Origin: Parasutterella muris
Lineage (GTDB): Bacteria; Pseudomonadota; Gammaproteobacteria; Burkholderiales; Burkholderiaceae_F
DNA length: 64,000 nucleotides
Direction of reading: 5' to 3'
Assembly: GCF_009767915.1 (NCBI RefSeq)
Contig: NZ_WSRP01000006.1
Coordinates: 1-64,000 of the forward strand
The translations under genes and the position numbers were made by a program. The notes beneath the pieces were generated by a model. The model searched no databases. It had not been told where the DNA came from and was given only the letters and a program-made list of their open reading frames with translations. The first letter of the stretch is position 1. Every line of letters begins with the position of its first letter. Positions 4,142-55,598 of the stretch are shown piece after piece.

Positions 4142-4820
4142 TCAGGGCCGAGATATGTTTTCAGCCATCCTGTACGGATTGCGCGTATCTCTTGAAATCG
4201 GCCTTTCTTCGGTATTGATTTCCATTGTGATCGGCGTGTCGCTGGGGCTCATTTCCGGATATGCGGGCGGTATGACCGATACGTTCATCATGCGCTTCTG
4301 CGACGTGATGCTGAGTTTTCCCGCGATTCTGCTTGCGCTTCTCATTGACGGCGTCATCCGAGCGATTCTTCCTGAAAGCGTTCATGATCAGGCCGCTTAT
4401 GGGGTTCTGATTTTTGCGATTTCTCTTTCCGGATGGGTGCGTTATGCAAGAACGGTTCGAGGCGCGACACTGACGGAAAAGAAGCGGGATTATGTTCAGG
4501 CCGCTCAGCTTTTTGGCGTAAGTTCCATGAGAATCATGTTTACGCATATTCTGCCCAATGTGATGGGACCGGTTTTGGTTTTGGCGACTGTTCAGGTTGC
4601 GACCGCGATCATTACCGAGGCGACACTTTCGTTTCTCGGCGTTGGCGTTCCGCCGACAACGCCGTCTTTAGGAACGCTGATCCGAGTCGGAAATGAATTT
4701 CTCTTTTCAGGAGAGTGGTGGCTCGCGATCTTTCCCGGCGTGGCTCTGATCCTTTTTGTGCTCACGATCAATCTGCTTGGCGATTGGCTGCGTGATGCAC
4801 TGAACCCGAAACTGCAGTAG
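4101..4820 (+). CDS. dppC: Dipeptide ABC transporter permease DppC, 5'-truncated
   Basis: Clear DppC sequence begins at the LPPAWMEGGNW stretch and continues through LGTDDQGRD (a hallmark just before TM2), the coupling loop (GATLTEKKRDYVQAAQLFG) and ATLSFLGVGVPP to the end. A complete DppC is about 280-300 residues and begins with TM1 plus a PYDP-type periplasmic loop. Here about 70-80 residues, including TM1, are gone because the reading frame upstream overlaps the M20 gene. From the in-frame ATG at 4101 the protein is 239 residues. An open frame extends back to 3924, but that part is only M20 sequence read out of frame. AAGGAGG at 4105-4111 is badly placed for either ATG 4101 or ATG 4155. 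Function is doubtful unless the join is an assembly error. Confidence 0.75.
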   Translation: MEGGNWKFVLGTDDQGRDMFSAILYGLRVSLEIGLSSVLISIVIGVSLGLISGYAGGMTDTFIMRFCDVMLSFPAILLALLIDGVIRAILPESVHDQAAYGVLIFAISLSGWVRYARTVRGATLTEKKRDYVQAAQLFGVSSMRIMFTHILPNVMGPVLVLATVQVATAIITEATLSFLGVGVPPTTPSLGTLIRVGNEFLFSGEWWLAIFPGVALILFVLTINLLGDWLRDALNPKLQ

Positions 4821-4829
4821 GAGCGGAAT

Positions 4830-5870
4830 ATGACAAAACAAGAACCGCTTTTAGAAGTTAAAAATCTTGTCGTAGAGATCCCGACGAGGCGTGAGAAACT
4901 CATAGCCCTGGATAAGGTCAGTTTTGAGATCTATCCGGGAGAAGTGCTGGGCGTTGTGGGCGAATCGGGTGCCGGAAAGTCGATGGTCGGCAACTCGGTT
5001 ATCGGTCTGCTGGGGGCTCCGGCTCATGTGGCCGGCGGAGAGATTCTTTTAAACGGACGCCGAATCGATAATCTGAAGGAGTCCGAGAAAGAAAAAATTC
5101 GCGGCGCTTCAATCGGTGCGATCTTCCAAGATCCGCTGACGAGCCTGAATCCTCTTTTTACGATCGGAGATCAAATGATTGAGACGATTCGGGTTCATTC
5201 CAATCTTTCCGAACAGCAGGCACGGGAAAAAGCGATCTCGCTGCTTGCACAGACCGGTGTTCCGGCACCTGAAAGAAGAATTGACAATTATCCGCATCAG
5301 TTCTCGGGCGGTATGCGTCAGCGAGTCGTGATTGCTTTGGCGCTTTCGGCGGATCCGAAGCTGATTATCGCGGACGAACCGACGACCGCGCTCGACGTCT
5401 CGGTGCAGGCTCAGATCATCGAGCTTCTGAAAAAACTGTGCGTCGGAAACGGAACGGCCGTGATGCTGGTCACGCATGATATGGGCGTGATAGCGGAGAC
5501 TGCAGACCGTGTTGCGGTTATGTACGCCGGAACGCTCGTCGAAATCGGGCCGGTCGAAGAAATGGTTCGGCAAGCGCGCCATCCTTACACCATCGGCTTG
5601 ATGAATGCGATTCCGCGCATCAGCGACCAAAGAGACACCCTCCAGCAGATTCCCGGCTCCATGCCGAGACTTTCGAAAGTTCCGAAGGGATGTCCGTTCC
5701 ATCCGAGATGCCCGATCGCAGACGAGAAATGTGTTCGTGAACGACCCAATCTTGTCGGAGAAACCAACCATTTGTGCGCATGCTGGAAAGCCGGTGAAGT
5801 AAAGGCGGATGTTCCTGTATTCCCGCCGGAGCCCTTTACGATTCATGCGCCTGAGGATATGCCGAGATGA
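4830..5870 (+). CDS. dppD: Dipeptide ABC transporter ATP-binding protein DppD
   Basis: A 346-residue ATPase subunit. Walker A is GESGAGKS (near 44-51), the signature is FSGGMRQR, and Walker B is LIIADEPTTALDV. The C-terminal oligopeptide/dipeptide extension has the four-cysteine pattern CPFHPRCP-x-ADEKC...HLCACW that binds an iron-sulfur cluster in DppD-type proteins. It energises peptide import with DppF. It starts 9 bases after dppC and overlaps dppF by 4 bases (ATGA), which suggests translational coupling. Confidence 0.92.
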   Translation: MTKQEPLLEVKNLVVEIPTRREKLIALDKVSFEIYPGEVLGVVGESGAGKSMVGNSVIGLLGAPAHVAGGEILLNGRRIDNLKESEKEKIRGASIGAIFQDPLTSLNPLFTIGDQMIETIRVHSNLSEQQAREKAISLLAQTGVPAPERRIDNYPHQFSGGMRQRVVIALALSADPKLIIADEPTTALDVSVQAQIIELLKKLCVGNGTAVMLVTHDMGVIAETADRVAVMYAGTLVEIGPVEEMVRQARHPYTIGLMNAIPRISDQRDTLQQIPGSMPRLSKVPKGCPFHPRCPIADEKCVRERPNLVGETNHLCACWKAGEVKADVPVFPPEPFTIHAPEDMPR

Positions 5871-6895
5871 TGAATGAGCATGTCAAAGCTTCCCAGTCTG
5901 TTCTGGTAAGCGTTCGAAATTTAAAAAAATATTTTGACGCTTCGCCGTCTTTGCTGGCTCGGCTTATTGAGCGCAAGCCTAAAGCGACTCTGAAGGCAGT
6001 GGACGGAGTTTCGTTTGATATTCGCCGCGGAGAGACTCTGGCGCTTGTGGGTGAGTCCGGATGCGGAAAATCAACCACCGCCCGAATGCTGGTCGGACTT
6101 TATAAGCCGACGGAGGGCTCTGTGGTTATTGACGGCAAAGATCTCTTTAACTCGAAGGGAGAGGATGAAAAACTTGCAAAAGGGAAAATTCAGATGATTT
6201 TCCAAGACCCTTATGCAAGTCTCAACCCGAGATGGAACGTCGGGAAAATTGTGGCCGAACCGATCCGCGCGCAAAAACTGATGCGAAATGCAAAGGAAAT
6301 TGACGATCGTGTGAACTCGGTGCTGCATCTTGTGAATCTGTCGAAGGAAGATAAGGCGAAGTATCCGCACCAGTTTTCCGGAGGTCAGCGCCAGAGAATA
6401 TCAATCGCTCGAGCGATTGCAATTCATCCGGAGTTTTTGGTTTGTGATGAGCCGACCTCGGCACTGGATGTTTCGGTACAGGCTCAGGTATTAAATCTGA
6501 TGCAGAATCTGCAGCGGGAGGTCGGCCTGACGTATCTCTTTATTTCGCATAACCTTTCCGTTGTGCATCACATCAGCGATCGCGTGGGCGTCATGTATCT
6601 CGGGCGCCTGGTTGAACTTACTGATAAGCGGACATTGTTTACGGAACCGAGACATCCGTATACGCGGATGCTGCTGGAAGCGATTCCCGACATGACACAG
6701 ATGCATAAGAAGCGCACGCCTGTGGCGGGAGAGGTTCCCAATCCGCTCAAACCGCCGAGCGGATGCGCCTTCCACCCGCGCTGTCCTTATGCGACGGAGC
6801 GCTGTAAAAGGGAAGTTCCGCAGATGAAGTTCATCGATTCGCACGGCTCGACGGCCGAAGTTGCCTGTCACGCAGTTGAGGAGCGAAGAATTTAA
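5867..6895 (+). CDS. dppF: Dipeptide ABC transporter ATP-binding protein DppF
   Basis: A 342-residue partner ATPase. Walker A is GESGCGKST, the signature is FSGGQRQR, Walker B is FLVCDEPTSALDV, and the C-terminal cysteine block reads CAFHPRCPYATERC. It is the last gene of the transporter operon and is coupled to dppD by an ATGA overlap. No good terminator was seen in the 100 bases that follow, so some read-through into lptF is possible. Confidence 0.92.
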   Translation: MMNEHVKASQSVLVSVRNLKKYFDASPSLLARLIERKPKATLKAVDGVSFDIRRGETLALVGESGCGKSTTARMLVGLYKPTEGSVVIDGKDLFNSKGEDEKLAKGKIQMIFQDPYASLNPRWNVGKIVAEPIRAQKLMRNAKEIDDRVNSVLHLVNLSKEDKAKYPHQFSGGQRQRISIARAIAIHPEFLVCDEPTSALDVSVQAQVLNLMQNLQREVGLTYLFISHNLSVVHHISDRVGVMYLGRLVELTDKRTLFTEPRHPYTRMLLEAIPDMTQMHKKRTPVAGEVPNPLKPPSGCAFHPRCPYATERCKREVPQMKFIDSHGSTAEVACHAVEERRI

Positions 6896-53958: not shown

Positions 53959-55131
53959 TTAGAAGGCCAGACCGACCGCAATTTTGAATGTCGCGGGCGA
54001 GGGCCTCATTGAGTAGGAAGAATCCGCCGTGTGTGTTTCATAGCGCGGGAACGCTAAGTCCACACCGCCGGTGATATGCAGGTTCTTAGTGATAGCGTAA
54101 GTGCCGCCCGCCTGCACCACGGGAGAGAAATCTCCTTTGTGGTAGCTGGTTCCTGCTTCAAATTTAGAACCCTGAAGTCGGAAATAGCCGGCGCCGATGC
54201 CCGCATAGAGCTTGACGGAATCGGAAGCCTGCATATGGTACTGAGCGGTGAGCTGGTAGCCTCTGAGCTTGAAGCTGCCGATTTGGCGTCCCTGAGAGCG
54301 CACCTTTTGCTCTGCCGACTGTGTAATGCCGAAGTCGAGTGCCCAATGCGGCGTTACAAAGAATCTGATACCGCCGCTGTAGGCGCCTTCGGAAGTGGTT
54401 GTCGCGTTATGCGGCATTCCCTTCATGTCGTTTTTCTGATAGCCGCCGCCCGCATAAATCAGGAAACGGTTGGAGAGCAGATTGTTGCTCGAGAAATCCA
54501 GACTCTTGTTTCCCTTGGCGTCGGTCGCGTAGTTGGCAAAGAAAAAAAAGATGTTGCTGAACGGAACATACGTGCCGTAGATAGAAAAAGCGTCGGTACC
54601 AAAACCGAGGAGCGGCAGCGGGGCCGGGAACGGGATCCACTTATAGTCACCGCGGGCGGTAATGCCGAGAGTGTAGCCGGCTTCAGCGTAGAAGTCCGAA
54701 TTTCCGAGCCGCCATCTTGAGAGCCATCCGTAACCGAGGAACGGCTCGATGTTGCTGTGCGAATCGGAAAACGCCATCGCGTAAACAATTCTACGGTTGC
54801 CGCGACCATCAATGAAATTCCGTGTGACGCCGCCGCCCCAGGTATAGCCGTTTTCGTTGCGGCGTTTTGGTGTCTTATAGGCCCAGCCCGGGTGAATGGT
54901 ATAGGCAGGCAGAATGAGGCCATCGGTGCCTTCAAAGAAGATCTTCTTAAATCCGCTCCAGCTGTCCGAGACGTAGCTGTCGGTTCTGTCCTCTGCTGAC
55001 AGGACGCCCGCAGGGAGCGTATCCAGAATCGCGTCCCAGACAGAACGGTCTGCAGCGCCTGCGGGAAAAACTACACCCGCCAATAAAGCGCCGAAAAGAT
55101 AGTTAGAAATTTTATTTTTCAGTTCAGGCAT
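53959..55131 (-). CDS. pagP: PagP lipid A palmitoyltransferase fused to an OmpW-like beta-barrel
   Basis: A 390-residue outer-membrane protein with two halves. Residues 1-27 are a signal peptide (ending PAGA-AD). Residues about 50-203 match PagP throughout: WSGFKKIFFEGTDGLILPAY, TIHPGWAY with H80, TWGGG, YAMAFSDSHSNIEPFLGYGW with D123 and S124, and GITARGDYKWIPFPAPLPL. The His-to-Asp distance (43) equals that in E. coli PagP (H33, D76, S77), so the active site should work. PagP moves palmitate from phospholipid to lipid A. E. coli PagP ends at its last strand; here the chain goes on. Residues about 218-390 form a second barrel resembling OmpW (YSGGIRFFVTPHWALDFGI, LTAQYHM, VKLYAGIGAGYF, VQAGGTYAITKNLHITGGVD), ending in the C-terminal Phe that BAM recognises. 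The frame is continuous with no sign of an error. Confidence 0.87.
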   Translation of the reverse strand: MPELKNKISNYLFGALLAGVVFPAGAADRSVWDAILDTLPAGVLSAEDRTDSYVSDSWSGFKKIFFEGTDGLILPAYTIHPGWAYKTPKRRNENGYTWGGGVTRNFIDGRGNRRIVYAMAFSDSHSNIEPFLGYGWLSRWRLGNSDFYAEAGYTLGITARGDYKWIPFPAPLPLLGFGTDAFSIYGTYVPFSNIFFFFANYATDAKGNKSLDFSSNNLLSNRFLIYAGGGYQKNDMKGMPHNATTTSEGAYSGGIRFFVTPHWALDFGITQSAEQKVRSQGRQIGSFKLRGYQLTAQYHMQASDSVKLYAGIGAGYFRLQGSKFEAGTSYHKGDFSPVVQAGGTYAITKNLHITGGVDLAFPRYETHTADSSYSMRPSPATFKIAVGLAF

Positions 55132-55250
55132 TTAGTAATGCAGTTATTTATGGGGTCACAAGCTTTGATAATTCTAATAAAAAAAAGCGTATCAACTCGT
55201 TTTTTCAGCCGGTGGAAAGCATTTTGAGTGTTTATTTATTGACAAACTGG

Positions 55251-55284: not shown

Positions 55285-55598
55285 GCGCGCGAAGTCTGTC
55301 AGGCGATCGCAGGGGAGAAAGACCTCGGAGGAAAGTCCGGACTCCATAGGACGGTGTAGGAGGTAACGCCTCTCCGCCGCAAGGCGAGGATTAGAGCTAC
55401 AGAGACGAGCCGATTTAGTTCGGGTGAAACGAGCAATCTCTACACGGAGCAACATCAAATAGGCAGCTGCTGACCCTGTCCGGCGAGGCTGCGGGTAGAT
55501 GGCTCGATCCCAAGGGTGACTTTGGGACTAGATGAATGACCGCCAAGGCGTTTTTCAACGCTGAACAGAATCCGGCTTATAGACGGACTTCGCGCTCT
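55285..55598 (+). ncRNA. rnpB: RNase P RNA (type A)
   Basis: The catalytic RNA that trims tRNA 5' ends. The conserved block GAGGAAAGTCCGGACTCCAT (P4 5' side region) begins near 55328. The matching 3' core, GATGAATGACCGCC then ACAGAATCCGGCTTATAGA, ends near 55583. The closing P1 helix pairs GCGCGAAGTCTGTC (55287-55300) with GACGGACTTCGCGC (55582-55595). The length of about 310 bases is on the short side for a proteobacterial type A RNA (E. coli 377). It lies upstream of mraZ. The flanks (55132-55250 and 55599-55670) hold no other gene that I can see. Confidence 0.95.

What the first reader, a model, noticed from the sequence alone, without database searches (positions are those of the whole stretch)
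53959..55131. PagP fused to a second outer-membrane barrel (OmpW-like) in one polypeptide
Residues about 50-203 are a complete PagP with H80, D123 and S124 at the same spacing as E. coli H33, D76, S77. Instead of ending at the last barrel strand, the chain continues through a linker (about 204-217) into a second domain with OmpW-like strands and a terminal Phe. To my knowledge PagP is a single-domain enzyme, so a tandem-barrel form that may join lipid A palmitoylation to a small-molecule channel or sensor would be new. The frame is continuous and the gene has its own terminator.
Basis: partly seen in the sequence, partly recalled or inferred. Interest (0 to 1): 0.85.

Follow-up and report, generated by a model that had tools for sequence, protein, structure and literature searches.

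The report
PagP enzyme fused to OmpW-like barrel
Gut bacteria of the family Sutterellaceae carry an outer-membrane enzyme that should add a fatty acid to endotoxin (PagP), built in one chain with a second small membrane barrel derived from the OmpW channel family, an architecture found in every PagP of this family we could check and in no PagP sampled outside it.

Summary
Window 53959-55131 (-) encodes one 390-aa chain: signal peptide, a complete PagP domain (PF07017, E 2e-32; catalytic H80, D123, S124), a linker of about 20 aa, and a second eight-stranded barrel ending in Phe. It is not an assembly error. In the window's family (Parasutterella; Sutterellaceae), 40 of 67 genomes carry PagP, and all 41 copies run in frame into the same C-terminal barrel. 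All PagPs sampled elsewhere in the order and phylum look single-domain. The fused PagPs form one clade (100/99), and both domains are under purifying selection. The C-terminal barrel is OmpW-derived: its nearest stand-alone relatives in the order are OmpW proteins, and its predicted structure fits OmpW best, tied with OmpA. Best reading: an active PagP with a covalently attached partner barrel that stabilises or tunes it; E. coli PagP is already known to be slowed by a neighbouring eight-stranded barrel, OmpA. Whole-chain structure prediction failed, and no activity has been tested. Multi-barrel chains as a class are published (Solan 2021; could not be read here).

The parts
53959..55131 (-). 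pagP-ompW-like fusion gene, 390 aa
   Evidence: open frame; full-length relatives in 35 family genomes and 41/41 family PagP copies fused in frame
55054..55131 (-). predicted signal peptide, residues 1-26
   Evidence: by eye: basic n-region, hydrophobic core, AGA/A-type site; A24 and A26 nearly invariant
54943..55053 (-). N-terminal segment, residues 27-63, with conserved (D/E)TxPAG motif and helix region before the PagP barrel
   Evidence: T38 and P40 invariant in 27 members; E. coli W17 position is F65 here
54523..54942 (-). PagP domain, residues 64-203
   Evidence: PF07017 residues 64-196, E 2.2e-32; PDB 1mm4/1thq/3gp6 E 3e-21 to 5e-21; alignment to E. coli PagP through residue 161
54892..54894 (-). 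catalytic His80 (E. coli H33)
   Evidence: invariant in 27 of 27
54760..54765 (-). catalytic Asp123-Ser124 (E. coli D76-S77)
   Evidence: invariant in 27 of 27
54469..54522 (-). linker, residues 204-221, expected to be periplasmic
   Evidence: low identity (33%) but length kept: 26-28 residues between positions 200 and 226
53962..54468 (-). C-terminal OmpW-derived eight-stranded barrel, residues 222-390, ending in Phe390
   Evidence: PF13505 in 27/27 members; stand-alone OmpW proteins are nearest relatives; AF2 model and PDB fold match to OmpW, Z 19.9 over 167 residues
53895..53924 (-). intrinsic-terminator-like hairpin after the gene
   Evidence: 12-pair stem followed by T-rich tail
55168..55195 (-). 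weak sigma-70-like promoter match upstream (9 of 12)
   Evidence: near chance level (3 found, 1.4 expected)

Best explanation
The gene makes a tandem-barrel outer-membrane protein. After Sec export (signal peptide, by eye) the chain is assembled as two adjacent eight-stranded barrels joined by a short periplasmic linker; small barrels of this kind have both ends in the periplasm, so side-by-side insertion is topologically simple (inferred). The N-terminal barrel is a PagP that should move a palmitoyl or similar acyl chain from a phospholipid to lipid A (inferred from the complete domain and invariant catalytic residues; activity not shown). The C-terminal barrel came from an OmpW-type protein (shown by sequence and fold) but has lost the prolines of the OmpW lateral opening (shown), so it most likely no longer works as a channel. 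It most likely serves as a permanently attached partner that stabilises the PagP barrel and tunes its activity or its place in the membrane. This would replace the N-terminal helix clamp (E. coli W17/R59) missing from all fused PagPs (absence shown, replacement inferred), and parallels the inhibition of E. coli PagP by neighbouring OmpA (PMC7617971). Rough step likelihoods: two barrels in one chain 0.9; active acyltransferase 0.8; C-barrel as stabiliser or regulator rather than channel 0.5-0.6.
For: PagP domain; invariant H80/D123/S124 and R160, P173. Fusion real, family-wide and exclusive: 41/41 PagP copies in 40 genomes fused in the same frame; outside the family, open frames are too short for a second barrel, or in the one long case (L047, 417 aa) PagP is the last domain, and aligned ones end 0-5 aa after the E. 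coli terminus. Single origin: fused PagPs one clade, 100/99. Both domains under purifying selection, dN/dS 0.01-0.13 (PagP) and 0.04-0.11 (C) in five close pairs. OmpW ancestry of the C-barrel. Loss of lateral-opening prolines in 27/27 (their role from PMC2993939). Loss of W17/R59 in all fused members (role from PMC2887491). Precedent for a small barrel acting on PagP: OmpA or its barrel alone lowers PagP activity to about 35-45% in liposomes, OmpX does not (PMC7617971). Conserved locus between the mra cluster/rnpB and hemL-dsbD in many genera.
Against: No usable whole-chain structure: pLDDT 36 with two sequences. Nothing shows that the barrels touch. W17 and R59 are also missing from several single-domain PagPs (W17 kept in 16/24, R59 in 8/24), so the clamp-replacement idea is weak. 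The PagP outer hairpin carrying E. coli Y147 is shortened in all fused members, which could change substrate entry. The NCBIfam PagP equivalog cut-off is not reached (118 against 155 bits). The OmpA effect was measured on E. coli proteins, and the C-barrel is OmpW-derived, not OmpA.
Confidence: 0.57

Rival explanations
1. The C-terminal barrel is a working channel or lipid conduit of OmpW type, or a sensor, coupled to PagP, for example gathering hydrophobic ligands or lipids for the enzyme.
For: OmpW ancestry and fold; profile search of the PDB puts AlkL, an OmpW-family alkane importer, first (E 6e-5).
Against: All three prolines that line the OmpW lateral opening are lost in 27/27 fused members while kept in nearly all stand-alone OmpWs of the order that were aligned; no OmpW match above the Pfam cut-off for the window protein.
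Confidence: 0.2
2. The chain is a precursor: it is cut in the linker, giving a normal single-domain PagP and a separate small barrel from one gene.
For: The linker is the least conserved part (33% identity) and probably exposed in the periplasm.
Against: Linker length is nearly constant (26-28 residues between positions 200 and 226); no conserved cleavage motif seen; the PagP half has lost the terminal Phe of its own beta-signal in most members, the window included (E. coli F161 = T203).
Confidence: 0.1
3. The PagP half has lost acyltransferase activity and the fusion is a structural or surface protein.
For: Shortened outer hairpin with loss of the Y147 position, and substitution of the W17/R59 clamp; NCBIfam equivalog cut-off not reached.
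Against: Catalytic H, D, S and R160, P167, P173 invariant across 27 divergent members; PagP is the better conserved half (57% against 38% mean identity); dN/dS 0.01-0.13.
Confidence: 0.1
4. Assembly or sequencing artefact joining two neighbouring genes.
For: Run of A in the linker region near 54541-54548.
Against: Same in-frame fusion in 41/41 copies from 40 separately held genomes, including Parasutterella excrementihominis (L032).
Confidence: 0.005

Closest known systems
PagP, lipid A palmitoyltransferase (PF07017; E. coli PDB 1thq, 3gp6)
   Same: Complete domain, catalytic H33/D76/S77 and R114, P28, P127, P144 positions kept in the window protein.
   Different: Continues into a second barrel; last outer hairpin shortened (E. 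coli GTYNNGN to FSN); W17/R59 helix clamp absent; extra conserved (D/E)TxPAG segment upstream; ruler position G88 is Gly in the window but Ala or Ser in most relatives.
OmpW family (PF03922; OmpW 2f1t, OprG 2x27, AlkL 6qam)
   Same: Eight-stranded fold, the GSFK...QYHF...Y.GAG block and terminal Phe; nearest stand-alone relatives in the order.
   Different: Below the Pfam cut-off; lateral-opening prolines lost; covalently attached behind PagP.
OmpA transmembrane barrel acting on PagP (PMC7617971)
   Same: A second eight-stranded barrel next to PagP; tied with OmpW in the fold comparison (Z 19.7 against 19.9).
   Different: In E. coli the two are separate proteins and the effect was found by co-folding in liposomes; here they are one chain and the partner is OmpW-derived.
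Multi-barrel chains described as a class by Solan et al. 2021 (PNAS 118:e2104059118)
   Same: Two outer-membrane barrels predicted in one chain, eight-stranded, lineage-specific (content of that paper from memory).
   Different: Paper not held, so it is unknown whether PagP-OmpW is listed there; here one partner is an enzyme of known chemistry.

Membership tests
PagP (PF07017) | Pfam model above gathering score | tested here: met
   111.9 bits against 24, residues 64-196
PagP (PF07017) | Catalytic His, Asp, Ser at the E. coli H33/D76/S77 positions | tested here: met
   H80, D123, S124; invariant in 27 of 27
PagP (PF07017) | All eight barrel strands of the E. coli enzyme present | tested here: met
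   alignment runs to the last strand with only the last outer hairpin shortened; no good model of this half
PagP (PF07017) | Acyl transfer to lipid A | not testable with these tools
   needs lipid A mass spectrometry
E. coli-type PagP equivalog (NCBIfam NF008271) | Score above the equivalog cut-off | tested here: not met
   118.1 bits against 155; so a PagP-family member, not filed under this equivalog
OmpW (PF03922) | Pfam model above gathering score | tested here: not met
   18.1 bits (whole protein) and 20.3 bits (C-domain) against 24
OmpW (PF03922) | Conserved prolines of the lateral opening (OprG P69, P94, P95) | tested here: not met
   0 of 27 fused members at each of the three positions
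OmpW (PF03922) | Eight-stranded OmpW fold | tested here: met
   C-domain model pLDDT 69, pTM 0.60; OmpW 2f1t Z 19.9, rmsd 2.2 over 167 residues; OmpA within 1 Z, so not specific
Multi-barrel outer-membrane chains (Solan 2021) | Two complete barrels in one chain | tested here: inconclusive
   sequence and separate-domain evidence say yes; whole-chain model failed

The most novel reading that the evidence does not exclude
A family-wide, single-origin fusion in which a former OmpW channel has been turned into a built-in, covalent regulator and stabiliser of a lipid A acyltransferase: an outer-membrane enzyme controlled in cis by a second barrel, folded from one chain by the BAM machinery.
Probability: 0.45. 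Interest if true: 0.78.

Novelty: new variant of a known kind. Interest (0 to 1): 0.63.

Why it matters
PagP is a standard model for outer-membrane enzyme action and barrel folding, and all copies sampled outside this family look single-domain. A natural, conserved PagP with a second barrel makes two open questions directly testable: how BAM folds two barrels from one chain with a single terminal signal, and whether a neighbouring barrel regulates PagP, as OmpA does in E. coli liposomes. It also bears on gut biology: two papers infer weakly inflammatory, under-acylated lipid A in Sutterellaceae from missing lpxL/lpxM/lpxJ genes, and a search of their text found no mention of PagP (PMC5080374, PMC11022602). 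A PagP in most of the family's genomes would change that prediction.

Tried and rejected
A viral-contig scan for more permitted rows found none. The artefact reading was rejected on the relatives. OmpA rather than OmpW as source of the C-barrel: the single sequence scores higher with OmpA_membrane than OmpW, but the profile, the nearest stand-alone relatives and the fold comparison favour OmpW. I looked for a single-domain PagP or a close stand-alone copy of the C-barrel inside the family and found none. The first extraction of relatives used unturned loci and was redone. PagP lateral-entry literature (Khan and Bishop 2009) and Solan 2021 were not held.

Full report
What was checked. The ORF at 53959-55131 (-) encodes one uninterrupted 390-aa protein. 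Pfam finds PagP at residues 64-196 (E 2.2e-32) and a generic outer-membrane barrel family, OMP_b-brl, in the C-terminal half (E 1.6e-13), with OmpA_membrane just above and OmpW just below its cut-off. Solved PagP structures match residues 72-196 (E 3e-21). A terminator-like hairpin follows the gene. The gene sits between the RNase P RNA gene (55291-55595, +), which lies beside an mraZ/rsmH-type cluster, and hemL and a dsbD-like gene (the gene names other than RNase P are from sequence reading and synteny, not from a family search).

The fusion is real and old. A search of 100 related genomes found full-length relatives in 35 genomes of the same family and, outside the family, matches to one half only. 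L032, 63% identical, is from Parasutterella excrementihominis; a genome of the window's own genus (G002) has a contig of the same length, which places the window in Sutterellaceae, Burkholderiales. A PagP search of all 67 held genomes of the family found 41 copies in 40 genomes. A search with the C-barrel profile found a barrel behind each of them. All 41 pairs are on the same strand, under 200 nt apart and in the same reading frame. No single-domain PagP and no close stand-alone C-barrel was seen in the family. In 300 genomes of the order and 398 of the phylum, the PagPs outside the family had open frames too short for a second barrel or, in L047 (417 aa), ended with PagP; 24 of these taken into an alignment end 0-5 residues after the E. 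coli C-terminus. A tree of the PagP domains puts all 30 fused rows on one side of a branch with 100/99 support; the tree tool warned that long branches meet there. Both halves are under purifying selection in five close pairs (dN/dS 0.01-0.13 and 0.04-0.11). In many, not all, genera the gene lies at the same locus next to hemL or dsbD.

The PagP half. H80, D123 and S124 correspond to E. coli H33, D76 and S77 and never vary in 27 members. R160 and P173 (E. coli R114, P127) are also invariant; P75 (E. coli P28) and P190 (E. coli P144) are kept in most. Differences are systematic: the last outer hairpin is shortened, removing the Y147 position, and the W17/R59 pair, which in E. coli clamps the N-terminal helix to the folded barrel (PMC2887491), is absent from all fused members. 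That pair is also absent from several single-domain PagPs, so this is suggestive only. The hydrocarbon-ruler position (E. coli G88; role from my own knowledge) is Gly in the window but Ala or Ser in most relatives, so acyl-chain choice may differ among genera.

The C-terminal half. All 27 members match OMP_b-brl; 17 match OmpW and 11 OmpA_membrane at E up to 0.1. A search of the order with the C-barrel profile brings up stand-alone proteins of about 200 aa; the three of these scanned are clear OmpW proteins (PF03922, E 1e-30 to 1e-45). The window C-barrel is 32% identical to one of them over 106 aa. AlphaFold2 on this half alone gives eight strands at pLDDT 69, pTM 0.60, and the best solved-structure match is OmpW (Z 19.9, 2.2 A over 167 residues), with OmpA at Z 19.7. 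So it is OmpW-derived by sequence kinship, while the fold alone does not separate OmpW from OmpA. OmpW proteins have a side opening in the wall lined by conserved prolines, Pro69, Pro94 and Pro95 in OprG (PMC2993939). None of the 27 fused members has proline at any of these positions, while the six stand-alone OmpWs of the order that were aligned nearly all do. This argues against OmpW-type transport.

How it probably works. Shown: one chain, a complete PagP with intact catalytic residues, an OmpW-derived barrel without the prolines of the side opening, conserved linker length (26-28 residues between positions 200 and 226). Inferred: two barrels side by side, joined in the periplasm, with the C-terminal Phe serving as the BAM signal for the chain, and acyl transfer to lipid A. 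The role of the second barrel is the open question. The best-supported guess is a fixed partner that stabilises or tunes PagP. A close precedent is that OmpA, or its barrel alone, lowers E. coli PagP activity to about 35-45% in liposomes while OmpX has no effect (PMC7617971); the authors did not find a confident predicted complex. I have not shown contact between the barrels.

What limits this. Activity, processing and interaction need the bench. Solan et al. 2021 described multi-barrel chains as a class (citation seen, content from memory); I could not read it, so the architecture may already be listed there. The held literature gave no paper linking PagP and Sutterellaceae enzymatically: the only paper naming both PagP and Sutterella is a microbiome study.

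Context. Two papers infer that Sutterellaceae lipid A is under-acylated and weakly inflammatory from missing lpxL, lpxM or lpxJ genes; a search of their text found no mention of PagP. The window's own genome has one lipid A acyltransferase-type gene (PF03279) besides this PagP.

Noticed in passing
window 54943-55053 (residues 27-63): A conserved (D/E)TxPAG segment between signal peptide and PagP helix, with T38 and P40 invariant in 27 fused members; I did not see its like in the single-domain PagPs aligned.
   Followed up: partly
L136:4038-5363 and 5553-6794 (genome G355): Two copies of the fusion gene in tandem in one genome.
   Followed up: no
L138 about 4256-5322 (genome G356): An in-frame TAG inside the PagP half, in a stretch that also holds undetermined bases; pseudogene or assembly error.
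   Followed up: partly
family genomes: 27 of 67 genomes of the family, including near-complete ones, have no PagP at all; none of them has a single-domain version.
   Followed up: partly
residue 135 of the window protein (window 54727-54729): The position of the E. coli acyl-length ruler (G88) is Gly in the window and three other aligned members, Ala in 14 and Ser in 7 of 27, which may mean different acyl-chain choice among genera.
   Followed up: no
window 55291-55595 (+): RNase P RNA gene (RF00010, 216 bits) directly upstream, on the opposite strand.
   Followed up: yes
PMC5080374 and PMC11022602: Published inferences about under-acylated Sutterellaceae lipid A rest on missing lpxL/lpxM/lpxJ; PagP is not mentioned in the text searched.
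   Followed up: partly
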